Part shown: piece after piece, positions 3,751 through 63,458 of the stretch
Position numbering within the stretch: position 1 is the first letter of the stretch
Layout of the letters: each line of letters opens with the position of its first letter
Assembly (NCBI GenBank): GCA_916610825.1
Contig: OU744448.1
Location: forward strand, 18,599,936-18,663,935
Length of the DNA stretch: 64,000 bases
Source: Haliclystus octoradiatus
Taxonomy: Eukaryota > Cnidaria > Staurozoa > Stauromedusae > Haliclystidae
Direction of reading: 5' to 3'
The notes under the pieces: generated by a model
What the model was told of the DNA's origin: nothing
The model's database searches: none
Seen by the model: only the letters and a program-made list of their open reading frames with translations
Position numbers and translations under genes: made by a program

Positions 3751-4034
3751 CACTCAGACACTGCTGATGACGATGTACCTGGTATCAACTCTGTCTCTGC
3801 TCAACCATTGATTTCTGCAACTGATCTGCCAGCCATTGCCAATGGTCAACGCCTTGCTTAACTATCCTGTAATGGTCCAACCAACAACTCATCTGTGAAA
3901 CGTCAGAGCCGTATCCACGCCCATTGGTCCCATCTGATCTACAACAACCAATTATCGATACATTTCACAATCTTGGACACTTTGGTTTTCACAAGACTGC
4001 CAATATGATAATGGAACGCTACTTTTGACCCGAC

Positions 4035-4703
4035 ATGAGAAAACACATCAAAGAATATTGCCGCATCTGTCAAACCTGTCAACAAGTAAATATTGGCCGC
4101 CAAACCCACTCTTCAATTGGTACATTTGCATTACCTTCTAACCGTTTTGAGAGTGTTCACATTGACATAGTTGGACCTCTACCTACACCTGTTCCTCCTC
4201 CTGAAGGTATCTATCAACTACCAGCCAGATATTTACTCACGATCATTGATCGTCACACTGGCTGGCTAGAAGCTACTCCATTGGTCAACAACATTGCTCC
4301 AGATGTCGCACATGCCTTCATCAACATATGGATTGCCCGTTTTGGAGTGCCTCTCTATGTTATTACTGACCGTGGTTCACAATTTGAATCTGAATTCTTT
4401 TATCATGTCTCTCTTGCAGTTAGTTTCCATCGTTTACGCACTGCAGCATATCATCCTCAAGCCAATGGTAAGATTGAACGACAGCACCGCAGCATCAAAG
4501 TTATTCTGAAAGCCCACAGCATCAATTGGCTCAGAGATCTTCCTATCGCCTTACTTGCTCTTCACAGTGCACCTGATGACGATGGCATTTCTCCATTTAC
4601 ACGACTTACTGGTGAACGCATTATGGTACCGCGTATTCTGGCAACTGAAGACGCTGATCCGAAATTTTCAATAGATGATTTATTACACACACTATCTCCT
4701 TGA
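4035..4703 (+). pseudogene. pol: Gypsy integrase domain
   Basis: 222 codons. The end of the HHCC zinc finger is visible (CRICQTC, residues 9-15). The catalytic triad is D44 (HIDIVG), D112 (TDRGSQF) and E148 (GKIERQHR), with 35 residues between the second Asp and Glu, the DD35E spacing of retroviral-type integrases. The reading frame closes shortly after the core. A C-terminal remnant follows in another frame at about 4822-5112. The domain is well preserved, so the element died fairly recently in evolutionary terms (inference). Confidence 0.85.
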
Positions 4704-4821
4704 AACAACGAAAGAATCAACAATGTTATATACCAAAAGATCTATTAACTTCTACTACACATGTATGGCTTAGAGTTGACCGTGTTCCTGGAAGCACCCT
4801 ATACTGGCCCATTCAAAGTCA

Positions 4822-5112
4822 TCAGTCATTGAACTCACAAATGGATTACCACAAACAGTTTCAATTGATCGTCTAAAACCCTGTCGTCTTACTGCTACAC
4901 CAACATCTCAAACTACTGTCTTATCAACTTCACCTGATCCAACTCAAGATGTTTCATCGCAATCTTTAACCAGTACTCCAGATGCACCAAGTCCACCATC
5001 CACAGCACCAGCTACAGACGCAAACATTTCTACATCAGCACCTATATCGACAATTACAAGAACTGGTCGTCACGTAAGAATAAACCTTAACCCTGATTAC
5101 ATATATTATTGA
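4822..5112 (+). pseudogene. pol: Gypsy pol C-terminal tail
   Basis: An open frame starts VIELTNGLPQTVSIDRLKPC, typical of the integrase C-terminal SH3-like end. A Ser/Thr/Pro-rich linker follows, and the frame ends TRTGRHVRINLNPDYIYY before TGA at 5110. RTGRHVR is the usual tail motif of invertebrate Gypsy pol proteins. It is shifted relative to the integrase frame. Confidence 0.65.
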
Positions 5113-9499: not shown

Positions 9500-9514
9500 A
9501 GCTAACGGGCCAAT

Positions 9515-10243
9515 ATGTCGTCAAAGATTAAAATTACAGATGTGATTGTAAAGTATAATGGTGACGGAGATTTTACTGAATGGTGGCGACGATTTGATGC
9601 TGTATGTAAACTGAAGTCAATAACGCACGTTGATAGAGCTATGCTGATTCCTTTGTTATTGACTGGTCCTGCATTTTTAGTCTTTGAAAAAATTTCTGAG
9701 GAGAATAAGAAGATTTTAGATCAAATCAAGAAGAAGTTAACATTGGCATTTTCAATATCGCGCTATGCTGCTTGGGAACAGCTGCAAAGTCGGCGTTTGG
9801 AAAAGGGAGAGAACGTTGACGCTTTCTTTGCAGATTTACAACGATTAGCGGAGTTAGCTGACGTGAATGGTGCAACGTTGGCATTTGTGGCTGGTTTACC
9901 GGAGAATGTAAGCCACCAGTTGAAAATGATGTCAGATCCCACTGATGAAGACCTTGTCAACCGGGCAAGAATGTTAATGGAGACGGAAAACCATATGGAA
10001 GCTGGTATGATCGCAAGGCAAGCAGCATATTCTCGGAAATTTAATAATAAGAATATACGTTGTTATAACTGTCATGGTATTGGTCATATATCTCGTAATT
10101 GTACTGACAAGCCTAAAGAAGCCATTACGTGTTTCAAATGTGGAGAAGCTGGGCATTACGCTATTGGTTGCGCAAAGAAAAGTTCGGGAAACGTGGAAGG
10201 GGCTGCGCTATCAGTGGAAGCAGTCGCGGCCCCTCGAAATTGA
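9515..10243 (+). CDS. gag: Gag polyprotein with two CCHC zinc knuckles
   Basis: 242 codons starting 15 bases after the 5' LTR. Residues 10-165 form a capsid-like region (FTEWWRRFDAVCKL near the start, as in retrotransposon gag). Two zinc knuckles follow, C183-x2-C-x4-H-x4-C196 and C206-x2-C-x4-H-x4-C219, which bind the element RNA. Gag forms the particle in which reverse transcription takes place. The frame overlaps pol by about 115 bases; pol is in the -1 frame and is reached through the signal at 10186. The short spacing from the LTR leaves little leader RNA. Confidence 0.92.
   Translation: MSSKIKITDVIVKYNGDGDFTEWWRRFDAVCKLKSITHVDRAMLIPLLLTGPAFLVFEKISEENKKILDQIKKKLTLAFSISRYAAWEQLQSRRLEKGENVDAFFADLQRLAELADVNGATLAFVAGLPENVSHQLKMMSDPTDEDLVNRARMLMETENHMEAGMIARQAAYSRKFNNKNIRCYNCHGIGHISRNCTDKPKEAITCFKCGEAGHYAIGCAKKSSGNVEGAALSVEAVAAPRN
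10186..10233 (+). promoter_or_regulatory. -1 ribosomal frameshift signal (slippery site plus hairpin)
   Basis: GGGAAAC at 10186-10192 is a canonical X-XXY-YYZ heptamer in the correct phase of gag (G GGA AAC). After a 6-base spacer (GTGGAA), GGGGCTGCG at 10199-10207 pairs with CGCGGCCCC at 10225-10233, a 9-bp stem with one G-U pair and a 17-base loop; an A-U pair can extend it. Slipping back one base moves the ribosome from gag into the open pol frame. The GC-rich stem stands out in an AT-rich element. Confidence 0.85.
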
Positions 10244-13167
10244 ATAAATTACTGATTGTTAAAGTTTTAGTGAATGGTAGTGCTGCTCGTGCATTGGTTG
10301 ATACTGGTTGTACATCCACTATTATTAGCTCTACAATTTATAATAATTATTCAAAGTCAATGATGAATGGCGGCGCTATTGTAATGATGAATGGACAGTC
10401 TACTCCGATAATTGGACGTGGTAAGGTAATGATACACTATGATGATTTTACGAGTAATGTGTTATGTTTGGTAGTGAACGATTTAATGAGCGATATTGAT
10501 ATGATTTTGGGATTGGATGTGATTACCCTTATGGGGGGTTTAAAAATTATGGGAAATGGGGCGTTTGTTCTTGGTAACGTGTGTTGTGCAACTGATGTGA
10601 TTTCAGAGGACATGAGCGTGTCGAAGGGTGGTGTTGTAGAAATAAATGATGATAATGTTTCTGCAAAGTTTGAAAGTGACGTTTGGACTGTAGCGTGGAA
10701 GTGGATCGACGATTGTGCGCCAGAAGTACTGGATAATACGATAGGATTTTATGGTAATGATGATATGACAAAATTTGAATTTGAAAAAACATTAGATTCA
10801 TGGATCGATCAATCATATTTAATACCTTATGATGAGGGTAAGATGGGGCCACCGAAAGGATTGATTCCGATGTTTGCTGTAGTTCAAATTAATAAAAAAA
10901 AGGTTCGGCCAGTATTCGATTTCCGTGAAATGAATGAATCGGTGTCAATTTATTCGGGGGCAAGTGATATCTGTTTGGATAAATTGCGATCGTGGCGTCG
11001 TTGTGGGGTAAAATGCGGCATTGTAGATTTAAAAGATGCTTATTTGCAGCTTAGGGTCGATCCATCATTATGGCCATATCAAACCATTAAACATAAGGGG
11101 CAGTTGTGGTGTTTGACTAGAATGGGGTTTAGTCTAAATGTGGCACCGATGATTATGACTACCATTTTAAACAAAGTATTATCCTTAGATTCTACTGTAA
11201 GAGAAGGTGCAGACTCTTATGTTGATGACATCTATGTAAATGAAGATATTATTAATTGCGATGATGTTATAAATCATTTATCTAAGTTTGGTCTCAAATG
11301 TAAACCAGCAGAAAGATTGAATACAAAAGACGTCGTAAGAGTATTAGGATTAAATGTTATAAAAGATGAAAACAAGCTGGTATGGAAAAGGGCTAATGAA
11401 TTATGTATTGATGGGATAATGTTTAATACTTTAACAAAACGTGAGTTATTTTCACTGTGTGGTCGTTTTACAGGAGTTAACCCAATATGTGGATGGCTAC
11501 GTATAGCAGTATCTTATTTAAAAAAGATTGCCTCACCAACGGATTGGGATGATGTATTACCTGAAAATATAATTGGTTATGTTAAAGAGTTATGCAAACG
11601 TCTAATTGGTAATGATCCAGCTTATGGTAGATGGGATATCAATTCTACTGTAAAAGGAAATCTTTGGTGTGATGCTAGCTCAATTGCCTTGGGCGTCTGT
11701 TTACAAATTGAAAATGAAATTGTAGAAGATGCGTGTTGGTTAAGAAAGGATGAAAAGCATATTAATTTAGCAGAATTGGACGCAGTTTTAAAAGGTTTAA
11801 CTTTAGCGGTAGTATGGAAATTAAAAGAAATTACTATATTTACTGATTCTGCTGTTGTACATGGCTGGTTATTAAATACACTGTCTCCAAGAAAACGGGT
11901 GAAATCAAAGGCAACTGGTGAGTTATTAATTCGTAGGAGACTAGAGTTATTTAAAGATATTGTTCATGATTACGAATTATCAGTATCAGTTACTCTTGTT
12001 CGGTCTGATGTGAACATTGCAGATAAATTAACAAGAGTACCTACACATTGGTTAAAAGGGAAACATATCAATTATCTTGAAAATAGTAACACTGAGGTTT
12101 CTTCGACAAATGTTTCTGCTTCTGCAGATGAAAATGTAACTAATTTGTATGATTTGCATAAGATTGTTCATACAGGGGCAAGAGCTTTAATGTATTTAGC
12201 TGATGAAGTTGGAGTACAATCGACAGAGAAAGATGCCAGAGAAGTAATTACGAATTGCAATGAATGTCAGTCAATCGACCCGCATCCGATTCAATGGCAG
12301 AAAGGATCGTTAGATGTGGAAGATAATTGGTACCGCTTAGCAATTGACGTTACAAAATATGAAAGGGATAAGTATTTATCTATGATAGACTGTGGACCAT
12401 CACGATTTTGCATTTGGCGTAAGATCCGCAATGAAGGAGATGCAGAAATGATTAAACAATTAAAGTATGTATTTATGGAACGAGGACCACCAGACGAATT
12501 AATGTTGGATAATTACAGTTCATTTAAGTCAAAAGACTTTACTGCATTTTGTAAATCATGGAATATTAATGTAGTACCTAGAGCAGCATATTATCCAGCT
12601 GGAAATGGTATTATTGAAAGGAATCATCGCACTATAAAACGTTTAGCATCAAGAGGGAGTTATTCTATTGAGGAAGCTATATATTGGTATAACAATTTAC
12701 CTTCGGACGGTCGCACTGTTGCCCCAGCAAATGTCATCTATGATTATAAAGCGCGTTTAAAAATTGTACCATCTACAAGTAATGTCACTAAACCACTCGC
12801 CCAAAAAATGTACAGAGAAGGTGATCTAGTATGGGTAAAGCCTGATATTTCTGTACGGTGCAATGTCAAATGGAAACCTGGTGTCGTAATATGTATACAA
12901 TCTTCTACAAAGGTTTTGGTTCAAATTGGAGAATACGAAAGTTTGAGACATGTTTCGCATTTACGTAAACGTTACGAAGATGACAATTTTGATGATGGAA
13001 ATATTATTTATCAAGATGAACCAGTATTAAATAACGATGATATAAATTCTTCTTATAGTTCATCTGACGATGATGATGATAATGAAGTTGTAAAGAATTT
13101 AAATGTACGCAGATCACAAAGAATTGTTAACCCACCTGATCGGTATGGTTTTGATATAGACAATTGA
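10187..13167 (+). CDS. pol: Pol polyprotein: protease, RT, RNase H, integrase
   Basis: An open frame without interruption, probably made as a Gag-Pol fusion by -1 frameshifting at 10186. The ATG at 10129 is upstream of that site and unlikely to be used. With residues counted from 10129: protease DTG at 58-60 (ALVDTGCTSTII); RT with VRPVFDFREMN, GIVDLKDAYLQL and YVDD at 364-367; RNase H with D515 (WCDASS), E549 (LAELDA) and D573 (FTDSAV); integrase with D740 (AIDVT), D794 (LDNYSSF) and E830 (GIIERNHR), exactly 35 residues between the last two. The tail is acidic (SSSDDDDDNE) and then basic (NVRRSQRIVNPPDRYGF), as in many Gypsy integrases. The HHCC finger before the integrase core is poorly visible: only CNECQS is clear. 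Confidence 0.92.
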
Positions 13168-23400: not shown

Positions 23401-26400
23401 ATGGACAACCCCTATATTATTCAAAGCAAAACAATTGTGATCAGTCAATATCAATGTACTTTAATAATTAGAAAATGATATGGTCTGAAAAAGCAATTTA
23501 CCAATACAAAATATTGACATATTATTATAATTTAAAATAATATATTTGAGATGCATGTAGTTAAATTGGCGTACCTCATAACACCAGCGGCCGAGTAGAG
23601 TGTATGCAGCAGGATCATCATTTTTCAATTTGATTGATTTTTCAATGTGTTCCTGTAATAAAGGCATTGGTTTGATTACAAAACCAAGATATAGTAAGAC
23701 TACACATTTCATTACTTGCTGATAATCCAGGGATTCCTCTGATCAAAAATATCACTAACCTTGAATTTGTATCCCATTAATATTTTATCTTGCGTTGGTT
23801 GAAATTCACTGTAGCTACCAAGTAGAATAGCAAACCTAAATAAAAAATAATGCCAACATATTGTACAGCCGAATTCAATATTGCTTTATAATTACAGGTA
23901 TTTCTGTTGTCTAATGTTAAATATAGATTTGGTATTGATTAATTAGTTTGAATATAATTATAGATTTGCTATAACTCATTAGTTTTGATATTGCCTGTTA
24001 AAAGATTACTGCTTGCTATGTTACTATATAAGGATAGTTATATTGTATTTGTTTTATGATTGGTCAGCTTTATTGAGTAATGTTTCTTACTTACTATATA
24101 AGGATTTGTAATATTGTATTAGCTTATTTGATTGGTTAGCCTCATTTTAATATGCCTCGTTTACAGGCATATATATATATATAGAAATAAATTAAGGTGT
24201 CGTCATTCTTCACCTTGCGTTGTTGGTAGAATCGATTGTTGTTTTATTGTGTTAATAAGTTAACTACAATTTATAAATTTCAAAGCAAATTGCCAATAAT
24301 AAAACCAGTTCAGGATATACAATCATGATTAGTTTAGTCAACTAGTCGTACAATGAGTCTACTTTACTTACAATTTATCATTACATTTTTCAAGTTCTAT
24401 TATTTAGGAATAATAAATTAGCAAGTTGATCAAGTTTCTTCTTTATCTGATAATATTTTTCTCTGCCACTAGTTTTCTGACGCTTCGCTTTAAAGTTTTG
24501 AAAAATCATAAGGCCTTGTATAATTGTTCAAAAATAGGTGGTTGTTATGCTTACGTCAACTCTACCACACTGTGCTTGGGTACTAATGAATGAGGTAATG
24601 ATTTGATTGGATCAAAGGAAATATACCAACAAAACGATATCTCGAGGTATGGCGGGTTTTAGATTAAAATATTGTGTTTGTGTGTTTTCAAATTAGTTTG
24701 GAATTGTTAGAATTATCTTGGGGCTCTTACCAATCAAAATTATTAATATTTACTATAATTACAATAGTCCATGCAACCTAGATATGACTTTATGGTGTCA
24801 GACATGTCCCTGTTCATGGTATCCCTTGCAAAAATCTATGAGTTCATGAACAGTTCATGCACAGTTCATGAACAATTCATGAACTTCATGAACAGTTCAT
24901 GCACATTTTTTTGTTGGTTCATTTCTTTAACATTCAAATTCTGAAGGTTGAATGAATTGTGCATGAGCTATTTATCAACAGTTCATGAAAGACTAATAGA
25001 AATTTTTGTCAATAAAATGCCGTTTAATGTTCAAGAGCTAATTATTAATTGTCCATGGACAGCCCATGAGCGGTTGCTAAAGTGTTTATGGTTTGTCAAG
25101 AGGTTTGTAAGTAGTTCATTGGGTTACTGAACTGTCCATACACTCATGAGAGAGTTTACACGATGATCAACATAAAAATAATACCATTTATGAGCAGCTG
25201 CATCAGTGTCATCAATGATAATTGCCTTGCCTCCAGCTTCCACACCTGAAAAGAAAGACAGAATTGTTAAAGTATTGATATTCCAAAAAAACGTATTTCA
25301 TGAATTTATAATGTTCTTGTGTTTCTGCTGTGCGCTGTTATTACCTACTCCAAAATGCATTCAAAAATTACTATTCTGCGTCTTATTCTTTTTCCACAAC
25401 CAGGAACCTGTTTATTTTTCGTTTATATACCTCAAATCTAGATAAAATATATATGTCCGTCTTGAGATTGAATCAATCTTTCTGAAAACATGTATTCATC
25501 ATTTGGTTTAAACGCTATATTTTTATATATATAGACTACCCAAGTATATTTTTGTGCTCCATGAGGCTTCGGCCAGAATTTTTCTGCCTCTTTCAATGCT
25601 TGATTGGCAGGAGTGTGATCTGGTAGTCTTTGTAGATGGCCCTACCATTTTAGATGTCTGGCTTCGACCTCAAGGCTCCATGGGGATTGATTTGTAAAAT
25701 TGTACAGGTTAGAATTTATTATTTTATCTTCCCATGTCAAATTCATTATTCTTCTTAAAAATTTTCTTTGAAAAATGTCTCATAAATGTTCATTATTATT
25801 TGTTACCCGACATAACTCACAATTGTAGGCCTAGAAAAAAATACTTTCCACATTAGTTCTGAAAATGCTAAATTTGTTTTCAATGTTTATCTTCTTGTAA
25901 GAAAGCTTTTAGCTTATTCGAGTCCTGAATAAATGATGATGATGGTGATGATGATGAATCATGTGATATGATATAATATTATTAATACTATATTTTATCA
26001 TATAATATTGTCAACATTAAATTATATCCAATGATTCATTAAAATGAGACTGCTAATACAATGGTTATATTTTTGTATAATTGTATTTATCCTTGTTGAT
26101 GAGAAGTGAAGCGTTGTTTTTTGCCAGTACATCAAACAGGAGACATAGAACGATGTGGTGATAAAAAGAAATAAATGGGAAAAAACTTTTTAACTTTTTT
26201 ACTCTGTGGTGATAGAGCTGTTAAATTTATTACAATTGTACTGATGACAGGTGAATCAAAATATATTGTTCTTTATAAATTCATGATATTATACTGAAAA
26301 CTTAAATTGTCAGTTATGTAGAAATAAATGATTGAAAATTAGGTCTGGTGCATGTCAGCCCACAGTGTTCCTAGTCTCCCCAATTAAATTATTGGTCTTC

Positions 26401-44849: not shown

Positions 44850-46016
44850 GAAAATGGCCCAACAATCTGCGGTGACGAATGGAGTGACAAAAGTGTTATG
44901 AGTTATTTGGGAGCAACTCTGGTTCAGTCTCCTGGAAATTGCTTGTAAGTATGTGTATGTCTAACCACATAGCTGTGACATCAAACCTTGGAAATCATTC
45001 ATGCAAATGAGGCAATTATTTTTTAGGCAAGCCAAATTTATAACTAACAATGAAATCTTTCTGTATTCATATTTTATTTATAAACCTCATCATAATTGTA
45101 CTCAGCTAGTAAATGTTTATGTAATTAGTCGATGTTACTAAAACAATTAGACATCTTATCCTCGTTCTACTAATTCATCCTTCGAAAAAAAAACAGTTCA
45201 GCAGTTCATGAACAGTTCATAAATGTTGAATTGACCCAAACTTCTATGAATTGTTTATGAACTGTTTGTGAGGGTTCATGAACTGTTCATGAACTCCTGG
45301 ACTATTTTTACATGGGATAACTGTTTACGCGTTCTACTAATAGTTTACAGCCTTTAGCAATCAGCAGGCAACTTAATCTATTATATTAATATCAAGTATC
45401 AATGTCTCACATTGGCGATAAATAGCTATGTAATGTAAAACAGTTTGGAGAATAGTTAGTTAATAATTATCATGTGACGTTAATTGCACTATAAATCTTA
45501 AATAATAATGATAATGATAAAGGATAATGAATCGCTACTGGAAACATAATATGATGGGATTGGGTACTGAAATGATTATATGGTATGTCTACTGAATAAA
45601 ATTCGAATCCATATTATGTTTACACGTTATATTAATACATCTAGATTCTTCTCATTCCACTGAAAAACTACTGAAATGCACCTTGAAATTTCAAAGCTAA
45701 TTAATTATGCCCAATTCAGTACACTAGTCAGTATGTTTTGAGTAGTTAGCTTTGAGGTTTTCAAAAGTCATAGTGTTGTTATAATAGGAAACGTAGCAAC
45801 TTGTCTCCCTGTTAACATTTTTGTTTTGTTTACATTTTGATTGTATTTCTTAGCAAGGAATATTCAGTCACATGCTGCCCAAGAATTGTTCTTGACAAGC
45901 TAGAAAAAATTGGTTATGTTGTCATAGCAACATCAGGTGTTGGACAGGCTATTATCTGGACACTGCACAAACCCAAAGATATAAACGAAAAATCAACTGA
46001 TCCAGAGAACCATTAA
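44850..46016 (+). CDS. GCHFR: GTP cyclohydrolase I feedback regulatory protein (GFRP)
   Basis: GFRP binds GTP cyclohydrolase I and sets tetrahydrobiopterin synthesis: inhibition by BH4, stimulation by phenylalanine. Exons 44850-44944 and 45854-46016 (GTAAGT donor, TTCTTAG acceptor) join in phase across a Phe codon. Visible: ENGPTICGDEWSD, YLGATLVQSPGNCF, then PRIVLDKLEKIGY and TSGVGQAIIWTLHK, all matching conserved blocks of the 84-residue family. The first 10-12 residues (a beta strand) must come from an upstream exon that I did not find; exon 2 starts in phase 0. The C-terminus extends about 14 residues (PKDINEKSTDPENH) past the usual end. A poly(A) signal follows at 46239. Confidence 0.9.
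45183..45317. mobile_element. Foldback element (GTTCATGAAC family), copy D (GCHFR intron)
   Basis: CGAAAAAAAAACAGTTCAGC at the left and GAACTCCTGGACTATTTTTA at the right as imperfect inverted ends, with AGTTCATGAAC units inside. Confidence 0.7.
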
Positions 46017-46513: not shown

Positions 46514-46522
46514 GTAATAATA

Positions 46523-46588
46523 AAATTTATGTTTATCTAATAGCAGATAATATAGGGCTCTATATGTCTTCATTTGACAGAGCGTAAT
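46523..46588 (-). repeat. 65-bp module X, copy 1
   Basis: Read on the minus strand: CGCTCTGTCAAATGAAGACA, then ATATAGAGCCCTATATTATC, TGCTATTAGATAAACATAAA, TTTT. It lies between two TAA arrays. A second copy is at 46790 and a third, split by a LINE, at 59737 and 62371. It contains TTATCTGCTATTAGATAA, a 6-bp hairpin. Confidence 0.8.
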
Positions 46589-46869: not shown

Positions 46870-46968
46870 TATGGCATTGAGTAAAAAATCTGTCTGAAGA
46901 TCGCAGTGAAATGCGTGAAACTTGAAGTAACAGTTAAGAATGTGTATTCTTTGACTCTTTCGCCATAG
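46870..46968 (+). mobile_element. Solo Penelope-associated module carrying a hammerhead
   Basis: About 100 bp, from ATATGG to CCATAG, homologous to the outer 3' end of the Penelope-like element (57300-57395 and 59632-59727), but with no coding sequence. TAA arrays lie on both sides. Confidence 0.75.
46890..46933 (+). ncRNA. Hammerhead ribozyme, solo copy
   Basis: Type I layout. Stem I CTGT (46890-46893) pairs with ACAG (46930-46933); core CTGAAGA; stem II CGCA/TGCG around loop GTGAAA; GAA; stem III AC/GT around TTGAA; cleavage base A at 46929. Stem II differs from the copies at 57336 and 59649 (CGCT/AGCG) on both strands, so pairing is kept. Confidence 0.8.
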
Positions 46969-50800: not shown

Positions 50801-53474
50801 AACAGTTCATGAACTCAACACTTTTTTTCCATGGGTTTATATATGTATATGTACTGAATATAACAGCTCTTTACTATAGTTAACTTTATATTGTAACTTC
50901 CATTTGTAATCACAGACTCTCTACCTTGTAAATAGTAATGTATTATCTGTATTCCCCCTCTTACTCTTGAACCGTCATTGTGTAAACATTAACTTGTACC
51001 CCTGCGAAAAACAGTTCAGGAGTTCATGAACAGTTCATGAACAGTTCATGAACAGTTCATGATAATTTGGGGCCATTTAGCGTTCATGAACTCCTGAACT
51101 TTTTCGCAGGGGTATAGCTGGTTCACCATCAAAGAGGCTCTGTTACTACATTCATATGATACTCATTATTCATCCCCTCCCTGTCTGTGGCCAGCTATTT
51201 ATATACAAATATATTATTTCATACATATTTACGTGGTGTTCTATCACTATCAGTCTCAAATTAGAATACTACACTACATATACTCAATCTATAATGAATG
51301 TAATTAATAAGTTTATTGTGCATTCCTGATTTTATCACACAGCAGCAGATTAAATAATCCTGTATGGTGCAACTTATTCTTCAGGTTTTCCAGTTCTTAT
51401 ATAATCCTTGATAACACATTCATCTATGTTTAAAAGCAGCGAACTGAAAATCCATATCATCGATATATTACTGTATGTAATTGTTACTCATAACTTTCAA
51501 CGGTGTATTGAAATTGTGTAGAAATTTTATGACCTCACAAAGGATTCCTTTGACCTTTAACAAATTATTTTGCTCTAGGATGCTGCAAGGAATATTCATA
51601 GTTCATAGGATTTATGAACACCAGTAGTGTTAATGAACTCAACACTTTTTCACAGGAGATTTTTTACATGTATTCTACCTATAGTGTAATCTAAAAATTT
51701 ATTTATAACTCATGACAGAAATAACTAATCAATAACTATGGCTAATGATGGAAGTATTGAAAGCTTTGCGGATTTTAAATATTTTGAATTGCAATTGTTT
51801 TCATTTAGGATGTTGAAGCTAACAAAGCTGATGTGGTTGTTGCAAATCAACAAAAACCATTATTTGATGTAAGAATTATAAACTATTTTCAATTAGTCGA
51901 AACCGACTAGGGTACTATGCAATGATCTACATTCTGATTGGTTGCTCCGTCGTCCACTATTTTCTCATGGTGAACACTGGCAAGTTCTCTGTCAAATTTC
52001 AAAAAGTAATCAAGCGATTCGCAAATGTTTTTGAATCAAAATTTTATACAAATTATGAGAGTAATTTATAAATTCCTTCCCCGAGAAATCAACGAGTAAC
52101 AAAATATGAGATGAAGTTGCTCAATGGTAGGCTATGCATATATAATTTGAATCTTATTTAACAATCTTCTCGCAACTTCTTGCTGTTTTATTGCAGATAT
52201 AAATAAGTCCGCTAGTCAGCTAAAGTTTACAAACAGTGAAATTTTGTATTACAAACTGAAAACTTATGTATTTTTAGATACTCAATAGTTACCTTGCTCA
52301 AGTTTGCTATTTTGTGGGGCTGTATTTGGTAACCAGTATTGATATCCAACTTTTTTGTTTTAAAAATTAAATCTGAATCAAGTCAAATTAAAATTCATTC
52401 TCCAAATCACGACGCTGCAGTCGTCATGGATGCCTTTGATTGACGGTTGTATTTAAAATTAATTATACAGAAAGCGAATAAATAGTTGGAATTTAATTCT
52501 TTTGATATGTTTTGTGTGCACCACTAGTTGGTTTCTACTAAAACAATTAGACAGCTCGCCCTTGTTGTCTACCGTCTTGAATAGTCCCCTCAGAGGACTA
52601 TTCAACGGTAGCCAACTCGGGCTCGTTGTCTAATTGTTAAATAGATTAAATAATTGATTTGATGTACCTATGACATAGATGATTGTATGGATGAATAAAT
52701 GTTTATTAGATCATAATAAAATTTACAGAAAATAAAAAAAAATAATGATAGTTTTACAATGTTACATGATAAGCTCCTCCCTTAAGTTTGGAAGATTGTT
52801 TGTTTCCTACCTTATATTTACAGAAAATTGAAAATAAATTTCAAAATGATAACACAAATTGAAATTTTAAAAATACGAACAATGAACAGTTCACAAACAG
52901 TTAGCGAAAGCTGGATCAGCTCACGTTCATGAACTGTTTCCAAGGGGATTTAGGCTCATTAAAAACATAATGTTAACGTTGAGGTGCTTTCATTGATTGT
53001 TCATGAATTTTCCTTGAGCTATTTGTGAATTGATGAACTGAAAAATGATCTGCATGTATGACATTGTCTGATATGAACACACACAATACAGTGTAACCCG
53101 CTTGTGTGCACATCAAGAGTTATTTAGCAAGGACTATCTATTACCTGGTAAAATAGTTAATGGATTTTCAAAGACTGCAGATGAGCAATAATTCCATTTG
53201 AGTGGGATACACTGTATGATATAACTACAGATAGAAGGGGTATTCACCCTATCAAATCGTTTTATTTTTAAATTTCAGATCGAAGTTGATGCATCTGTCA
53301 TAGATGAGAATATTGCTGAGGAAGACAACCCTAATATACTTCCAGATATAATGGAGAATATGTTTTACTTTGAACAAGCAGGTGTTGGTTTGCCAAAAGA
53401 AGATATTTTTAAAATATTCTTAGCTCTAAAGCAGCTTACAGACACATACTCATTAGAGAGTTGTCGTTTCTGGG
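47733..53474 (+). CDS. Radial spoke head 4/6 homolog (partial gene)
   Basis: RSPH4A/RSPH6A form the head of the radial spoke in motile cilia and flagella. Exons found: 47733-47839, 50102-50169, 51809-51868, 53279-53474. Exons 50102 to 53279 join in phase and read DRFQDVLIEEKKAKFKFKPD, DVEANKADVVVANQQKPLFD and NMFYFEQAGVGLPKEDIFKI, ending SCRFWG. FYFEQAGVGL and SCRFWG are hallmarks of the family. One exon (expected to encode the YDHL...DERPENA block, length 2 mod 3) between 47839 and 50102 was not found, and the C-terminal two thirds are not seen after 53474. The gene either continues past 64000 beyond a pile of retroelements or is broken. Confidence 0.85.
48440..48878. mobile_element. Foldback repeats (GTTCATGAAC family), cluster E left
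   Basis: Scattered GTTCATGAAC, CATGAACT and ATGAACCTC words through 48445-48870, broken by the SINE that follows. Confidence 0.5.
48879..49228 (-). mobile_element. tRNA-derived SINE, copy 4
   Basis: On the minus strand the head is GAGGATTAGCTCAGATGGCA and box B is GGTTCAAATCCCCC, with the full body and tail. GTTCATGAAC repeats run up to both sides, so it is nested in foldback DNA inside a radial spoke intron. Confidence 0.9.
49229..49790. mobile_element. Foldback repeats (GTTCATGAAC family), cluster E right
   Basis: Dense run of AGTTCATGAACAATTCATGA-type units at 49231-49510 with degenerate units to 49780; probably several elements inserted in or beside each other. Confidence 0.65.
49924..50071. 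mobile_element. Foldback element (GTTCATGAAC family), copy G
   Basis: CCTGCGAAAAACAGTTCAGA at the left, CTGAACTGTTTTTCGTAGGA at the right. It ends about 30 bases before the splice acceptor of the exon at 50102. Confidence 0.75.
50102..50169 (+). CDS. Radial spoke head 4/6-like gene, exon (DRFQDVL block)
   Basis: Acceptor CTATTTTAG, donor GTCAGT. Begins with two bases of a split Asp codon and ends in phase 0 at ...PDTIK, the region of RSPH4 between the N-terminal helix block and FEQAGVGL. Confidence 0.75.
50456..50504. mobile_element. Very short foldback element, copy H
   Basis: CCCCTGTAAAAACTGTTCAT ... TTTCCACAGGGGT: terminal inverted ends with almost no interior. Confidence 0.6.
50723..50836. 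mobile_element. Foldback element, copy I
   Basis: CCCCTATGAAAATAGTTCC to AACACTTTTTTTCCATGGG, with AGTTCATGAACAGTTCATGA inside. Confidence 0.7.
50997..51114. mobile_element. Foldback element, copy J (type copy, TA duplication)
   Basis: The best-preserved member. TA|CCCCTGCGAAAAACAGTTCA, then four AGTTCATGAAC-type units, a unique centre (AATTTGGGGCCATTTAGC), then the inverse end CTCCTGAACTTTTTCGCAGG GG|TA. TA on both sides suggests a Tc1/mariner-like 2-bp duplication (family knowledge). Confidence 0.85.
51809..51868 (+). CDS. Radial spoke head 4/6-like gene, exon (ANQQKPLFD block)
   Basis: 20 codons, phase 0 at both ends, acceptor CATTTAG, donor GTAAGA. The AxxQKxLF phrase is conserved in RSPH4 proteins. 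Confidence 0.85.
51869..53278. other. Radial spoke intron with foldback remnants
   Basis: Degenerate GTTCATGAAC units at 52880-53045. The palindrome-like pair at 52550-52645 (CTAAAACAATTAGACAGCTC mirrored by GACAACGAGCCCGAG...) suggests another small inverted repeat: GTCCCCTCAGAGGAC at its centre is a perfect palindrome. Confidence 0.45.
53279..53474 (+). CDS. Radial spoke head 4/6-like gene, exon (FEQAGVGL block)
   Basis: Acceptor TTTCAG, donor GTAAGT, ends in phase 1 after SCRFWG. NPNILPDIMENMFYFEQAGV and the helix IFLALKQLTDTYSLES align well with RSPH4A/RSPH6A. The strongest single exon of the gene. Confidence 0.95.
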
Positions 53475-53589
53475 GTAAGTTTAAGCTAACCTCTTTGAAA
53501 GTTTCATTAACGGTTCATCGGCATTTCTGCAAAATTTGGTTACTTATATACTTATATGCTAACTCTACGTCAGATTTTATTTGCACCTA

Positions 53590-53690
53590 TCCGAAATTGA
53601 CCAAAATTGATTTTTCATGAACTGTTCATAAACTGTCTGTGAGGGTTCATGAACTGTTCGTGAACTCCTGAACTTTTTTTGCAGGGGTAG
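53590..53690. mobile_element. Foldback element, copy M
   Basis: Only the right half is clear: TTCATGAACTGTTCATAAAC ... CTCCTGAACTTTTTTTGCAG GGGTA. Confidence 0.6.
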
Positions 53691-56543: not shown

Positions 56544-57301
<758 letters not shown>

Positions 57302-57335
57302 TATGGCGAAAGAGTCAAAGAATACACATTCTTTA

Positions 57336-57378
57336 CTGTTACTCAAGTTTCACGCTTTTCACAGCGATCTTCAGACAG
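57336..57378 (-). ncRNA. Hammerhead ribozyme, minus-copy PLE
   Basis: Identical to the 59649 copy when read on the minus strand: stem I CTGT/ACAG, core CTGAAGA, stem II CGCT/AGCG, GAA, stem III AC/GT, cleavage base A. It is on the same strand as the RT of its copy, downstream of the ORF. Confidence 0.8.
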
Positions 57379-57545
57379 ATTTTTTACTCAATGAAAAATA
57401 TACATGATATCTACGTTCTATGATAAACTCTCCGTAATGCTGCTTTCTATTGTTTAATTAATACAATGCTATTGTTATTGCTATTGTTAATACAAGTGGT
57501 AGAAAAATGTGATGGTTTCCTTTATTCTCAGTAAATGATTATTTA

Positions 57546-58716
57546 TTATGTTTTTGATTTATTAAAATTGGACAGGTAATATTTATTTTCGTGACGACAT
57601 TTAGATATTAATTCAGTTTTTTTGTTTATTATTGGTTCTTTTGCGCATATAATATGATATTTTTCTAAGAGGCATAAATGGCATTTTTTCGAGATGTTGT
57701 TGTATGCTTTTGCATTAGCGATGGCTGACCATTCGATTTTGTATGTGATGTTTTTGTCTTTTAAATCCCAAACGTGTTTGGATAGTTGTGTGCTAGTGTT
57801 GTATTTTCTGTGTTTAAGTGTTGCCTTGTGTTGCGTGTAGCGTTGTTTGAACGTGCCTTCCGTCAACCCAATGTAGCTCTGTCCTTCTTGGTCAAATGGA
57901 GTAGTGACGTTTGCTTTATAGATAATACTTTTCATTTGGCATTTGTTGTTGAAAGGGCATAAGTTTTTGTATCTACAGTTGCATTGGTTGGTGTTAGTTG
58001 TGGTGTTTGTTGTCGAATTGATTATTTTATTGTTATGGCTCTTTAGGATTGAATTCATGTTATTTGTGCAACTATAGCTGACTTTGATTGTGTTGAGATT
58101 GAAAATCTTGTTTAATTTGTTCGATTTCGGGAAGTGTTTTTTTATTAAGTTAAGGAACGTACGACCGATGTTAGTTTTCACGCTCTTGTTGTAGGGTGGA
58201 TTGAACCATATGGCTTTTCTTGATCGGCATTTTCTATTGTTGTTTAATGTTGTTTCTCGTGGATTGTATATTAGGTGCGTATCGTGTCCGCTTTTTCTCA
58301 AAGCGTCAGCGTATGGTTCTTTACTGTTCTCGAATATTGTGGAGTTAGTGGATAAATCAGATAGTCTTTGATTAATAGCTGTTGGTATTTGTTTTAGTAT
58401 ATTTGGCGGGTGGTTGGAGTTGATGTTAATGTATAATGGTTGGTCGTTAGGCTTTCGATATGGCTGGTATGTGTCAGTGTTCAAGTTAAATGTTAGGTCT
58501 AAGAAGTCAATTACCTTTAAGTTTGATTTTGTCGTTATATTTAGTCCAATGTCTTTGAATTGTTTGATTATTTTCTTTCGGAGTCTTTCTGCCTGTGTGC
58601 CTGATTTATTCTTCAGGATTGCGATACCGTCGTCTCTGTAGAGCCCTACGTTCCCGTTCCCGAAAATGTTGCTTATTTTTTGTAAGATGAATAATCCGAC
58701 CAGTTCACACACCTCA
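57546..58716 (-). CDS. Penelope-like RT (partial) with GIY-YIG endonuclease
   Basis: The open frame runs 58808-57546 (420 codons), but only about residue 27 onward is element-derived in this direction; the first part is antisense of the plus copy. It shows RT motif B (YDGAEVCELVG), the catalytic YRDD at residues 57-60, thumb-like sequence (NLKVIDFLDLTF, PYRKPNDQPLY) and a Cys-rich linker (CNCRYKNLCPFNNKC), then the GIY-YIG nuclease (YKANVT...SYIGLTEGTFKQRYTQHK, ending LLEKYHIICAKEP). RT motif A and everything before it are missing, so the copy cannot move by itself. Confidence 0.9.
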
Positions 58717-58818
58717 GCGCCGTCATATCGAAAGCCTAACGACCAACCATTATACAATATACAATCCACGAGAAACAACATTAAACAACAATAGAAAATG
58801 CCGATCAAGAAAAGCCAT

Positions 58819-59481
58819 ATGGTTCAATCCACCCTACAACAAGAGCGTGAAAACTAACATCGGTCGTACGTTCCTTAACTTAATAAAAAACACTTCCCGA
58901 AATCGAACAAATTAAACAAGATTTTCAATCTCAACACAATCAAAGTCAGCTATAGTTGCACAAATAACATGAATTCAATCCTAAAGAGCCATAACAATAA
59001 AATAATCAATTCGACAACAAACACCACAACTAACACCAACCAATGCAACTGTAGATACAAAAACTTATGCCCTTTCAACAACAAATGCCAAATGAAAAGT
59101 ATTATCTATAAAGCAAACGTCACTACTCCATTTGACCAAGAAGGACAGAGCTACATTGGGTTGACGGAAGGCACGTTCAAACAACGCTACACGCAACACA
59201 AGGCAACACTTAAACACAGAAAATACAACACTAGCACACAACTATCCAAACACGTTTGGGATTTAAAAGACAAAAACATCACATACAAAATCGAATGGTC
59301 AGCCATCGCTAATGCAAAAGCATACAACAACATCTCGAAAAAATGCCATTTATGCCTCTTAGAAAAATATCATATTATATGCGCAAAAGAACCAATAATA
59401 AACAAAAAAACTGAATTAATATCTAAATGTCGTCACGAAAATAAATATTACCTGTCCAATTTTAATAAATCAAAAACATAA
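58819..59481 (+). pseudogene. Inverted second copy of the PLE C-terminus (GIY-YIG)
   Basis: From MNSILKSHNN at 58969 the 170-codon frame is identical to the end of the minus-strand protein. Upstream (58819-58968) the same sequence continues in a shifted frame (one missing base in the poly-A run near 58890). Carries the Cys-rich linker and the whole GIY-YIG domain, but no RT core. Confidence 0.85.
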
Positions 59482-59648
59482 TAAATAATCATTTACTGAG
59501 AATAAAGGAAACCATCACATTTTTCTACCACTTGTATTAACAATAGCAATAACAATAGCATTGTATTAATCAAACAATAGAAAGCAGCATTACGGAGAGT
59601 TTATCATAGAACGTAGATATCATGTATATTTTTCATTGAGTAAAAAAT

Positions 59649-59691
59649 CTGTCTGAAGATCGCTGTGAAAAGCGTGAAACTTGAGTAACAG
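59649..59691 (+). ncRNA. Hammerhead ribozyme, plus-copy PLE
   Basis: CTGT (59649-59652, stem I), CTGAAGA (59653-59659), U, CGCT-GTGAAA-AGCG (59661-59674, stem II), U, GAA (59676-59678), AC-TTGA-GT (59679-59686, stem III), A59687 (cleavage base H17), ACAG (59688-59691, stem I). Flanking CATT (59633-59636) can pair with AATG (59697-59700), extending stem I after an internal loop. U-U instead of the usual G-C closes stem II next to the core, which could lower activity. Confidence 0.82.
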
Positions 59692-59736
59692 TAAAGAATG
59701 TGTATTCTTTGACTCTTTCGCCATATATTATTATTA

Positions 59737-59764
59737 TTTACCGCTCTGTCAAATGAAGACATAG
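59737..59764 (+). repeat. 65-bp module X, copy 3 (left part, split by the LINE)
   Basis: TTACCGCTCTGTCAAATGAA GACATAG; resumes at 62361 as ATGAAGACATAGAGCCC. ATGAAGACATAG is duplicated on both sides. Confidence 0.85.
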
Positions 59765-62372
59765 TAGTAGTATAGACAGTCACATTATAGGAATGTGCCG
59801 TCCCTCTTACGCCTTACATATTTGCTACATAAAGAACGCCACAAAACACGGTCAGACATAGCTGACAAAGAAACTTTTAAATAACACAATTCACGATACA
59901 AAACATTATGAAAAGATACTACTCTACCATAGCCCCGTCGAAGCATCTCCTTCGGTTGCCAATGAAGGATGTCATGCAGCGGTTGAGGGGCATACGTCTT
60001 TGATCTTTCGATGTGACCTAAAAAAGACATCTGACGTTGGTGAGCAATAGCAGAGGCAGAAGGGGAAAGTTTCCTAAGTTTAGCAGTAGACAGTAAGTTG
60101 GGCCAATGTACTCCTAAAGCATGCCGAAGCATGGCGTCATAAGCTGAGTCAAGTCGGGTCAATAGTGAGGTTGATAGAACCCACGTTTCAGAAGCATATA
60201 ATAGAACAGGTTCTATCGTGTGTCTGAACAGTCTTAACTTAACGTCAGTGTTGACATCGGACGCCCAGAATTTATTCAGACCTCTAATGGCTGCCCAAGC
60301 CTGGCCTCTACGTTGTGTTAAATCATCTGAAGAAGATGGAAGTACAGAACCTAGGTACTTGAACGAATCTACACGTTCTATGTCACCATTAGATGTAGCA
60401 AGGTGTGCCTGTTTTATGCCTAAAGCAATAAATTTCGTCTTAGTCGTGTTAATTGTCAAGCCTACCGTTTTACCAACCCGTTCAACTTCATCAAGAAGCT
60501 GTTGTGCTTCAGATATGCTATTTGTTAAGATAGCAATATCGTCAACGAATGAGAGGTCCGATACGCTGCGCTCTGGATGACGTGAAGACCTACGACGATC
60601 AAGGATAAAACCGGAAGAGTCAGGACATGAAATACGAAAAACATAATCGATAAATAGTGTAAATAAAAAAGGGGACAATGTGTCACCCTGTAGTACGCCA
60701 CAAGCTGTCGGGAAATCATCAGTATCACCATAGTGAGTTCTAACAAAAGCCGAAGTAGAAGAATAAAAGGACATAATAGCATCGATAAGAACAATAGGTA
60801 CATTATAGAAATCTAATATTTCTGGGATTCTGCATCTTAACACAGAGTCAAAGGCCTTTTTGAAGTCAATAAAAATTGCAACAATGTCTTTTTGATGAGT
60901 CCTACAGCCTTCTAACAATATCCTAGCTGATAGAATTTGGCCTAAGGTTGACCGGCTATTCCTGCCACCATTTTGATTGTATCTTAAATATGGGTCAATT
61001 ACTGACGCCAGCCTTTTATGTAGAATCTTATTATTAGCTTTTCCTGCAGTACAACTTAAAGTGATACCCCTCTGTTGGTCTAGGTTTCTAGACGTGTTCT
61101 TGTTGACGGTGATGACAGCAGATCTTCGCCATTGACCCGGTACTTGTTGCTCCCCTGACAAAACGGCATTTATGATGGTAAGTAGCTCATTTTGTACAAG
61201 AGGTTCTCGAAGTGCCAGGGTGGGGATTCCATCTGGTCCAGGAGACGCAAGGGGTTTCATAGAAAATAGAATAGAGCATAATTCGTCATTAGTAACAGGA
61301 GAAGTATTATAATTGGACATATCAGGAGGGGAGAAGTTAGGCGGTGGAGCTAATTTATTTAACGATAGTAGACAGGATGGGGGATTATATAAATCATAAT
61401 AATAATTACGAATCATACTGTTTGCCTCGACAGAATCATACGCTTCAACTAATAAGGGCTTGTGGGATGGGTTCTTAAGACGCCTTATCTCTTTCCATGC
61501 TATACAATGCTTATTACTATTACTAGCCGTTTTTACCGCTAAAATTATAGCGTTTAATTCACGCTCGATTAGGGCGTTATGAGCGGCAGCGAGATCTATT
61601 GTTTTTTGATCAACAATAGATTGTAAAAGACTGATATTGTGTATAGTAGGAGAACAATCACGTAATTGTTTTTTAGCAAGTTTCAATTCATATCTTACCT
61701 GTGTGATCATTGCGTCACTGTCCCAAGAGACGCGTGACCATTGTCTTTTCTTCCGCGGCAAAACGGTCTCAGCTGCTTTGATGATGGCTGAGGAAAGAAT
61801 GGAGAAATCACCTCTTGTGGGTTGTCCAACAAGAGAATTCTCAAGACAGTCGTTAAACGCTTGTGAAAACTCTGCCAGACTTTCCCAACAAAGGGATGAC
61901 CCCGCCTTTCCTTTGCAGTACCGGATGCGTTGTTTCATGCAAGAGAAAACAAGGCGATGATCAGATGGAATAGCAAATGGTGCTATAGTATCACAATCGT
62001 AAAATAAACGTGGACAATTAGTGAGAATATAATCAAGACGTTCTTTCCGGCCTTTCGGACCAGAGAAAGTAGCACGTCTTGACAGAGGTTTACGATACAA
62101 AGAATTTAACGGAGTAAGGTCATAGATATTAATAAGATCAATTAAATAAGGGGAATTATCATTTAAATTACGTCCTACAGGGTTTAATGACAAGGGGTAA
62201 CACGCATTAAAATCACCACACAACATAATAGCATCACGGGATGGTATTTTAACTAAGATTGAAGATAACTGAGCATAGAAAAGGGAGGCCTCGATCTGTC
62301 TGACAGCAGTGGGAGAGTAAACAGAGAAAACATGTACGATACGATCAAATAATTTAACAGATGAAGACATAG
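59753..62372 (-). mobile_element. 5'-truncated LINE with 12-bp target duplication
   Basis: The element body 59765-62360 is bounded by ATGAAGACATAG at 59753-59764 and 62361-62372. It splits a copy of module X, giving a clear empty-site reference at 46523 and 46790. The 3' end is a short TAC/TAG-rich tail (TATACTACTACTA on the minus strand). Confidence 0.92.
59785..62370 (-). CDS. LINE ORF: APE endonuclease (truncated) and RT
   Basis: 861 codons, uninterrupted. The N-terminus begins inside the apurinic-like endonuclease: GDFN at residues 52-55, LDYIL at 112-116 and SDHR at 136-139 are present, while roughly the first 90 residues are lost. The ATG is supplied by the duplicated target sequence. 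RT follows with RGITLSCTAGKANNKILHKR, NQNGGRNSRSTLGQILSARI, FIDFKKAFD, GVLQGDTLSPFLF and the catalytic FVDD (SDLSFVDDIAILTNS), then a long C-terminal region. No RNase H is recognised. GVLQGDTLSPF and a microsatellite-like tail recall RTE- or L2-like lineages; the clade is uncertain. The open frame implies recent insertion. Confidence 0.88.
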   Translation of the reverse strand: MSSSVKLFDRIVHVFSVYSPTAVRQIEASLFYAQLSSILVKIPSRDAIMLCGDFNACYPLSLNPVGRNLNDNSPYLIDLINIYDLTPLNSLYRKPLSRRATFSGPKGRKERLDYILTNCPRLFYDCDTIAPFAIPSDHRLVFSCMKQRIRYCKGKAGSSLCWESLAEFSQAFNDCLENSLVGQPTRGDFSILSSAIIKAAETVLPRKKRQWSRVSWDSDAMITQVRYELKLAKKQLRDCSPTIHNISLLQSIVDQKTIDLAAAHNALIERELNAIILAVKTASNSNKHCIAWKEIRRLKNPSHKPLLVEAYDSVEANSMIRNYYYDLYNPPSCLLSLNKLAPPPNFSPPDMSNYNTSPVTNDELCSILFSMKPLASPGPDGIPTLALREPLVQNELLTIINAVLSGEQQVPGQWRRSAVITVNKNTSRNLDQQRGITLSCTAGKANNKILHKRLASVIDPYLRYNQNGGRNSRSTLGQILSARILLEGCRTHQKDIVAIFIDFKKAFDSVLRCRIPEILDFYNVPIVLIDAIMSFYSSTSAFVRTHYGDTDDFPTACGVLQGDTLSPFLFTLFIDYVFRISCPDSSGFILDRRRSSRHPERSVSDLSFVDDIAILTNSISEAQQLLDEVERVGKTVGLTINTTKTKFIALGIKQAHLATSNGDIERVDSFKYLGSVLPSSSDDLTQRRGQAWAAIRGLNKFWASDVNTDVKLRLFRHTIEPVLLYASETWVLSTSLLTRLDSAYDAMLRHALGVHWPNLLSTAKLRKLSPSASAIAHQRQMSFLGHIERSKTYAPQPLHDILHWQPKEMLRRGYGRVVSFHNVLYRELCYLKVSLSAMSDRVLWRSLCSKYVRRKRDGTFL

Positions 62373-62410
62373 AGCCCTATATTATCTGCTATTAGATAAA
62401 CATAAATTTT

Positions 62411-62411
<1 letters not shown>
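62371..62411 (-). repeat. 65-bp module X, copy 3 (right part)
   Basis: AGAGCCCTATATTATCTGCT then ATTAGATAAACATAAATTTT, in the same direction as the left part at 59737. Confidence 0.85.
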
Positions 62412-62815
<404 letters not shown>

Positions 62816-63175: not shown

Positions 63176-63458
63176 ATGAAAAAATTCCATGGGTTTATTA
63201 AAGCTCATGAAAGAAATTTTGACTGCCCATGAACAGTTCATGAACAATCACAAAGAGTTCATGAACACTTCATGAGCAGGCGTAAAAATAACAATTCACA
63301 TTCTAAAGTCTCGAAGTTAATCATACGGTTGATTTTGATATATGACGCTGAAAAAAACATTTGCTGAGTTCATAAACTGTTCATAAACCGTTCATGAACT
63401 CCATAAACTTAAATGAACTGCTCAGGAATGTTCATGAAGAAAATTTTTCACAGGAAGA
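63176..63458. mobile_element. Foldback element (GTTCATGAAC family), copy O
   Basis: ACCCTATGAAAAAATTCCAT at the left, GAAAATTTTTCACAGGAA at the right, several CATGAACAGTTCATGAACA units and a degenerate interior. Confidence 0.65.

What the first reader, a model, noticed from the sequence alone, without database searches (positions are those of the whole stretch)
59649..59691. Hammerhead ribozyme in a Penelope-like element, supported by a compensatory stem change
All conserved core parts are present in order: CTGAAGA (C3-A9 with free position 7), GAA after stem II, stem III with A-U next to the core, GTA as cleavage triplet, and a stem I that pairs perfectly across the cut. Between this copy and the solo copy at 46890 stem II changes from CGCT/AGCG to CGCA/TGCG, i.e. 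both partners change and pairing stays. Hammerheads in Penelope-like elements are an established finding; this family, with a U-U closing stem II and a 2-bp stem III, may be new.
Basis: partly seen in the sequence, partly recalled or inferred. Interest (0 to 1): 0.9.

Follow-up and report, generated by a model that had tools for sequence, protein, structure and literature searches.

The report
Hammerhead ribozyme in a Penelope retrotransposon
A small self-cutting RNA motif sits in a Penelope-type jumping gene of an animal genome; the motif is of a known kind, but the ends of some short inserted copies look like a record of it cutting RNA in living germ cells.

Summary
All hammerhead core parts stand at 59649-59691(+). 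A strict hammerhead pattern has 2110 matches in the 262-Mb genome (reversed control 0). In 86 distinct copies the stems show 56 compensatory cells against 15.6 in shuffles. Rfam models do not hit. Minimal Penelope hammerheads and the U-U mismatch are in print, so the ribozyme is a new member of a known kind, in a Penelope-like element with 2.5-kb tandem units.

New is what copy ends show. Copies are head-to-head pairs: 14 of 14 examined have one tailed and one tailless end, five with 12-16 bp target duplications. Short pairs mostly end at ATTGAG, just before the ribozyme (69 of 100 arms; presumed RNA start). Another set ends exactly at the ribozyme cut: 14 of 42 arms in one search, one arm more than 1 nt past. 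This recurs in two other families; three further families gave none in a small sample. Cut and uncut ends are rarely mixed in one pair (17 cut, 1 mixed, 83 uncut). Best reading: cut and uncut RNAs both serve as templates, each pair using RNA in one state.

The parts
59649..59691 (+). Minimal type I hammerhead ribozyme (the finding); predicted cut between 59687 and 59688
   Evidence: (64.0 bits)
57336..57378 (-). Identical hammerhead in the inverted partner arm; predicted cut between 57340 and 57339
46890..46933 (+). 'Solo' hammerhead copy with CGCA/TGCG stem II and 3-bp stem III; predicted cut between 46929 and 46930
   Evidence: 62.1 bits
351..393 (-). 5'-truncated hammerhead arm of another subfamily (family 2); core broken at its 5' side
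   Evidence: (42.2 bits)
59623..59637 (+). TATA/Inr-like box TGTATATTTTTCATT upstream of the ribozyme; similar boxes seen by eye upstream of several families (second copy 57390-57404, minus strand)
   Evidence: promoter role inferred
59635..59640 (+). ATTGAG, presumed 5' end of the element RNA (end point of most short cDNA arms)
59719..59739 (+). CGCCATATATTATTATT: zone of the tailless 3' end; the minus-strand arm ends in the same motif (57292-57308) next to a (TAA)n array
59740..59764 (+). First part of the 3' tail of the right arm, interrupted by a nested non-LTR retrotransposon
62373..62413 (+). Rest of the 3' tail, ending at a (TAA)n array
57546..58728 (-). Left arm of the head-to-head pair: 3' part of the PLE frame (YRDDG ... 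GIY-YIG-like)
   Evidence: start at the junction read by eye
58724..59481 (+). Right arm: 3' part of the PLE frame with an internal deletion; joined to the left arm over a 5-nt overlap catat (58724-58728)
   Evidence: junction and deletion read by eye
59765..62360 (-). Nested non-LTR retrotransposon (863-aa RT and endonuclease frame) in the PLE tail, flanked by a 12-bp duplication ATGAAGACATAG (59753-59764 and 62361-62372)

Best explanation
59649-59691 is a minimal type I hammerhead ribozyme in the pseudo-LTR of a Penelope-like retrotransposon (PLE), 14 nt downstream of the presumed RNA start (ATTGAG). The element RNA folds into the hammerhead, probably with help (dimer or protein), and part of it cuts itself after the GUA. 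The PLE enzyme cuts both strands of an ATT-rich target and starts reverse transcription inside the RNA: on one strand at the end of the tail, on the other at the ATT run before it. [quoted passage not shown] The two cDNA 3' ends are then joined, by short overlap or with filler, giving the head-to-head, one-tailed insertion with target duplication. Shown: motif, covariation, pair architecture, one tail per pair in the pairs examined, TSDs in five of them, and two preferred arm ends. Inferred: actual cleavage, the RNA start, dual priming, and that both arms use the same RNA or RNAs in the same state.
For: Motif and chance. Genome copies: 900+1210 pattern matches, reversed control 0; 40 of 40 scored copies identical over 111 bp (capped at 40 of 1348 candidates). 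Covariation: 56 double-change cells against a shuffled mean of 15.6, slid versions at most 14 (alignment fitted to the model); on the unfitted A1, 12 against 3.8. Pairs: 14 of 14 have one tailed and one tailless end (2^-14 if ends were independent and evenly tailed); TSDs of 12-16 bp abutting both ends in L007, L027, L043, L044, L047. RNA-start ending: 69 of 100 arm ends at ATTGAG or 1 nt short, 28 shorter, 3 past it. Cut-site ending: of 42 arm ends at 21 loci, 14 at 0, 2 at +1, 1 at +15, 25 short by 2-8 nt; 5 loci (2 of them also) have both arms within 0-2 nt. Replicates: family 2, 3 of 4 loci within -1..+2; family 6, one pair (L020) with arms at 0 and +1. Rarely mixed: 17 cut, 1 mixed, 83 uncut (expected mixed 28.9, P 7e-19); counting only pairs with both arms at the site 5/1/83, P 7e-8. 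In vitro precedent for cutting and extending both strands and for two internal RT starts: PAc of Anolis (PMC11167929, parts 1-2 of 4 read).
Against: No self-cleavage assay. The monomer hammerhead fold is not the MFE fold: -2.8 against -9.6 kcal/mol for 59649 and -3.3 against -6.0 for 46890. Rfam hammerhead models give no hit in the window or in 15 of 67 fetched loci. In PAc, ribozyme mutants did not change insertion and no RNA-seq reads began or ended at the cut site (PMC11167929). The pattern-free blast of the fetched loci gives little support for the cut-site ending: 1 of 40 family-1 arms at the site, 2 of 14 in family 6 at 0 or +1, none of 18 in family 2, and none of 53 arms of families 3, 4 and 5 at 0..+2 (one at +3; four family-3 arms at -9 or -10); most of these loci were fetched because they hold a full ribozyme, which biases against cut arms. 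Mixed pairs exist (1 of 11 loci; by eye L023 in another family), and 10 of the 11 loci end 4 nt or more past the site. 7 of the 14 loci with an arm at 0 or +1 share one junction sequence (CTTTAC[A/T]GTAAAG), so their independence is not proven; flanks could not be fetched. Arm-end counts come from fixed patterns that see only part of the range, and the 83 uncut matches include at least one overlapping double.
Confidence: 0.72

Rival explanations
1. Hammerhead in a PLE, but arms ending at the cut site have another cause: reverse transcriptase stops at the folded stem I or at the neighbouring hairpin, not at a cut RNA end.
For: The 59649 RNA can form a hairpin AAAGAAUGUGUAUUCUUU directly downstream and a 4-bp stem I.
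Against: A block by stem I should stop before ACAG is copied (-4); arms end after ACAG is copied (0: 14, +1: 2, -4: 2 of 42). The same point is met in two families with other downstream sequence.
Confidence: 0.12
2. The cut-site junctions arise later, by end-joining deletion at a microhomology hot spot within longer inverted pairs.
For: 7 of 21 loci share a junction with a 2-nt overlap, and ACTGT/ACAGT is nearly self-complementary.
Against: Loci with filler and no overlap also end there, and arms past the site are nearly absent in that search (1 of 42 beyond +1).
Confidence: 0.12
3. A second transcription start at ACAG, not the ribozyme, makes the shorter RNAs.
For: Insertion ends only report an RNA 5' end, not how it was made.
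Against: It would have to coincide with the predicted ribozyme cut in three families; the TATA/Inr-like box lies upstream of ATTGAG, not there.
Confidence: 0.06
4. The motif is a sequence relic inherited with the pseudo-LTR and no longer a working ribozyme.
For: No Rfam hit; weak monomer fold.
Against: Compensatory changes in stems I and II across families and the cut-site arm ends.
Confidence: 0.08
5. The inverted pairs form by fold-back self-priming of one cDNA (self-priming on an antisense template is proposed for Adineta PLEs) instead of two primed strands.
For: Explains why both arms share one end; self-priming is proposed in PMC3846280 (passages).
Against: Fold-back should shorten the second arm; many pairs have two full arms with filler between them. 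In five pairs the outer ends sit at a TSD, and the two outer ends differ in the tail.
Confidence: 0.2

Closest known systems
Minimal type I hammerheads of Penelope-like elements (Cervera and de la Pena 2014; Lunse et al. 2017: neither held, known here from reviews PMC6155905 and PMC7761336, passages read)
   Same: Type I, very short stem III, in the pseudo-LTR, tandem element copies, thousands of dispersed motifs per genome
   Different: This family mostly has U-U at 10.1/11.1 and GUA; no other difference of kind seen. Dispersed copies are explained here as short head-to-head insertions.
PAc (Poseidon of Anolis carolinensis), PMC11167929 (parts 1-2 of 4 read)
   Same: ATT targets, both strands cut and extended, two internal RT starts that define the tail, hammerhead in the pseudo-LTR
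   Different: There the ribozyme overlaps the ORF start and RT starts lie in the ORF; no cut-site ends were found in RNA-seq. Here the tail lies between ribozyme and ORF, and insertions ending at the cut site are found.
Penelope families of Adineta vaga, PMC3846280 (passages read)
   Same: Head-to-head inverted pseudo-LTRs, TSD, tail optionally on one of the inverted pseudo-LTRs
   Different: Few copies there; here 14 of 14 examined pairs have exactly one tail, and arm ends are mapped to the presumed RNA start and to the ribozyme cut.
Retrozymes of animals, PMC7229834 (part 1 of 6 and passages read)
   Same: Non-coding copies with type I hammerheads
   Different: Retrozymes are 170-400 nt tandem repeats with canonical hammerheads; the short copies here are inverted pairs without an inner region.
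R2 retrotransposons with an HDV-like ribozyme at the 5' end (recalled, not read here)
   Same: Ribozyme cleavage sets the 5' end of the element RNA
   Different: Other ribozyme, single-arm insertions at one rDNA site.

Membership tests
Type I hammerhead ribozyme | Core CUGANGA, GAA and NUH cleavage triplet in order | tested here: met
Type I hammerhead ribozyme | Three helices kept by compensatory change, stem I open-ended | tested here: met
   Stems I and II (55 of the 56 double-change cells); stem III nearly invariant (1 cell), so hardly tested
Type I hammerhead ribozyme | Match to an Rfam hammerhead model | tested here: not met
   a library criterion, not a defining feature of the fold
Type I hammerhead ribozyme | Self-cleavage after the triplet | tested here: inconclusive
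   Indirect only: arm ends at the cut site; no biochemistry possible
Type I hammerhead ribozyme | Loop I-loop II tertiary contact (canonical forms) | not tested
   Described as usually lacking in PLE forms (PMC6155905)
Penelope-like element | RT frame with C-terminal GIY-YIG endonuclease | tested here: inconclusive
Penelope-like element | Tandem units with pseudo-LTRs, inverted arms, optional tail | tested here: met
   2517-nt spacing of two ribozymes around a 699-aa open frame; pairs and tails
Retrozyme | Short tandem repeats with canonical hammerhead | tested here: not met
   Short copies examined are head-to-head pairs

The most novel reading that the evidence does not exclude
Insertion junctions of Penelope-like elements are a fossil record of in vivo hammerhead activity: a minority of templates were cut by their own ribozyme before reverse transcription, and both strands of one target are extended on the same RNA molecule from two adjacent start sites, which explains the one-tailed head-to-head insertion and the thousands of orphan hammerhead motifs in animal genomes.
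Probability: 0.5. Interest if true: 0.8.

Novelty: new member of a known kind. Interest (0 to 1): 0.6.

Why it matters
[quoted passage not shown] Here the genome offers a sign, precise to a nucleotide or two and seen in three families, that cut RNA was used as template. It also gives a simple origin for dispersed hammerhead motifs: short double-primed copies of the 5' pseudo-LTR. Both claims can be checked in any genome rich in PLEs.

Tried and rejected
Chance motif: rejected. Rfam match as the decider: rejected, because no sibling copy in the 15 loci scanned hits either, including copies with a G-C at 10.1/11.1 (L021, L024, L035), while compensation is strong. Retrozyme: rejected by architecture. 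Novelty of U-U and short stem III: rejected on printed precedent. The tail (ACCGCTCTG...AAATTTTATT) as a separate target repeat: rejected, because it sits between ribozyme and ORF in the tandem unit and changes together with the ribozyme family (by eye). microRNA-like Rfam hits in L014, L020 and L027 (below gathering scores) are read as the inverted pairs themselves.

Led nowhere: Pfam and PDB sequence searches with the PLE protein; structure prediction (not available); a footprint search in families 3-5 with GACTAMACATTN{0,30}AATGTKTAGTC, never answered. Planned genome-wide counts of tailed/tailed pairs and a stem I search (GTAACBG) were not run. Two papers were read in passages without use (PMC12910113; PMC6431247). 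The organism was not determined.

Full report
What is there. The window (G000:C4:18599936-18663935 of a 261.9-Mb, 33-contig assembly) holds at 59649-59691(+) the parts of a type I hammerhead: stem I CTGT/ACAG, core CTGAAGA, a U-U, stem II CGCT/AGCG, GAA, stem III AC/GT with loop TTGA, GTA and the cut after 59687. The same 43 nt stand on the minus strand at 57336-57378, and the variant CGCA/TGCG with a 3-bp stem III at 46890-46933. A both-strand descriptor scan gives these three and no other, against 2 hits in total in 100 shuffles. A family covariance model adds a 5'-truncated copy at 351-393(-). Rfam has no hammerhead match in the window (E<=1, E<=10, on stretches of 501 and 251 bases) or in 15 of the 67 fetched loci (E<=5).

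Is it a real ribozyme fold? In the whole genome the pattern CTGANGAN{8,26}GAAACN{0,12}GTAACAG has 900+1210 matches and none when read backwards (about 100 listed). The matches seen fall into several families with different stem II: CGCT/AGCG, CGCA/TGCG, TGCT/AGCA, CGTT/AACG, GCGC/GCGC (36 distinct cores among the 67 loci; the outermost stem II pair is U-U in 29 of 36). Model R1, built from 36 such sequences, gives 130 matches in the 52 sources searched (of 68 held; some loci overlap). In the 86 distinct rows, 9 of 10 pairs show changes on both sides: 56 cells (55 in stems I and II) against a shuffled mean of 15.6 (0 of 500 as high) and at most 14 when slid. That alignment is fitted to the structure; on the unfitted alignment A1 the figures are 12 against 3.8, with the 3' side of stem I fixed by the search pattern. 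Against easy activity: the monomer hammerhead fold is weaker than the MFE fold in both copies, so help by dimerisation or protein is likely. Both kinds of help are reported for PLE hammerheads (dimers: cited in PMC7761336; protein: PMC11167929).

The element. In L003/L004 two ribozymes lie 2517 nt apart, with a 699-aa open frame (stop to stop) between them; the order is TATA/Inr-like box, ATTGAG, ribozyme, CCATATATTATTATT, tail (ACCGCTCTG...), ATG. The window encodes only 3' parts of this frame, on 57546-58728(-) and 58724-59481(+). The protein has 4895 relatives with E<=0.001 among 8000 scored candidates, with conserved YRDDG, a Cys cluster and a Y...YIG-like, R, H, E, N set. Pfam and PDB sequence searches give no useful match, so the name 'Penelope-like' rests on these motifs (recalled) and on the architecture. 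A non-LTR retrotransposon (59765-62360) sits in the window copy's tail with a 12-bp duplication.

How copies are built. In the loci taken as non-redundant, 14 pairs of ribozymes stand head to head within 6 kb (strict pattern only). All 14 have one end with the tail and one without (tail = a motif match 15-110 nt downstream); L020 and the 46890 copy, read by eye, do too. Five pairs carry duplications of 12-16 bp at the two outer ends (L007, L027, L043, L044, L047), so each of these is one insertion. In the other nine no duplication, or only short or misplaced repeats, were found; several of them stand in (TAA)n arrays, which the test leaves out. One-sided tails on inverted pseudo-LTRs are in print for Adineta (PMC3846280, passages). 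The in vitro work on PAc shows both strands cut and extended and two internal RT starts that bound the tail (PMC11167929). The present pairs look like the product of that reaction.

Where arms end. The pattern TCTTCAGACAGN{10,40}CTGTCTGAAGA has 83 matches per strand (a palindromic pattern, so 83 in all); 50 were listed, two of them overlapping at one place. Of their 100 arm ends, 69 lie at ATTGAG or 1 nt short, 28 are shorter and 3 run past. The pattern-free blast of the loci shows the same for family 1: of 40 arms, 16 end 50-53 nt upstream of the cut, 14 reach the end of the 260-nt reference, 1 ends at the cut, 9 are scattered. I read ATTGAG as the RNA 5' end.

A second preferred end is the ribozyme cut. 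AAAGAATACACATTCN{0,30}GAATGTGTATTCTTT finds 21 loci. Of 42 arm ends, 14 are at the first base after the cut, 2 one base further, 1 at +15, and 25 are 2-8 nt short, 8 of these at -3 (7 of the 8 being partners in a 2-nt overlap join). CATTCTTTACTGTN{0,30}ACAGTAAAGAATG finds 5 loci (2 of them in the former set), all ten arms within 0-2 nt. In family 2, 3 of 4 loci end within -1..+2; in family 6 one pair (L020) has one arm at the site and the other 1 nt past by the blast match. Pairs with one long arm and the other near the cut number 11; 1 of them ends at the site (+1) and 10 end 4 to 28 nt past it. Against this: in the blast of the fetched loci, families 3, 4 and 5 have no arm at 0..+2 among 53 (one at +3, L023; four at -9 or -10) and family 2 none among 18. 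These loci were mostly fetched for holding a full ribozyme, and the genome-wide search in families 3-5 did not complete.

Taking family-1 loci with an arm at 0..+2 and neither longer as 'cut', the counts are 17 cut, 1 mixed, 83 uncut, where independence would give about 29 mixed (P 7e-19); with both arms required at the site, 5/1/83 (P 7e-8). These classes come from different exact patterns, so the P values are indicative. One more mixed pair was seen in another family (L023).

Reading. Some element RNAs were cut by the ribozyme before they were copied, most were not, and the two arms of a pair come from RNA in the same state, most simply the same RNA. A structural RT block would stop before ACAG, not after it; a deletion hot spot does not explain the loci with filler; a second promoter would have to match the cut in three families. 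None of these is excluded by experiment. Limits: seven of the cut-site loci share one junction and their flanks could not be fetched; the RNA start is inferred; the organism is unknown; Cervera 2014 and Lunse 2017 were not held.

Known or new. The ribozyme itself is a new member of a known kind; U-U at 10.1/11.1 and a stunted stem III are in print. For the cut-site footprint and the same-state arms I saw no print in the listings of paper searches of the open library or in the passages read; most subscription papers are not in it.

Noticed in passing
window 59765-62360: Non-LTR retrotransposon (863-aa frame with endonuclease and RT domains) nested in the PLE tail, with the 12-bp duplication ATGAAGACATAG on both sides.
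   Followed up: partly
window 46519-46585: A tail module in inverse orientation stands inside a (TAA)n array without any ribozyme next to it, possibly a tail-only insertion.
   Followed up: no
window 2263-5112 and 9506-13167: Long frames that read like two LTR retrotransposons (by eye; the second with a zinc-knuckle gag and a 1016-aa pol); not searched.
   Followed up: no
window 53225-53620: Open frame that reads like an exon of a radial spoke head protein (by eye, not searched).
   Followed up: no
window 24835-25000, 45188-45274 and 63180-63440: Stretches rich in TTCATGAAC-like repeats that fold back on themselves; the first two give weak microRNA-precursor hits far below gathering scores.
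   Followed up: no
L022:403-671(-): Fragmentary match to eukaryotic SSU rRNA (103 bits) in a dispersed locus.
   Followed up: no
L001:1846-2296: Two direct copies of a short head-to-head family-2 pair, 372 bp apart, beside a family-1 copy: an array of short pairs.
   Followed up: no
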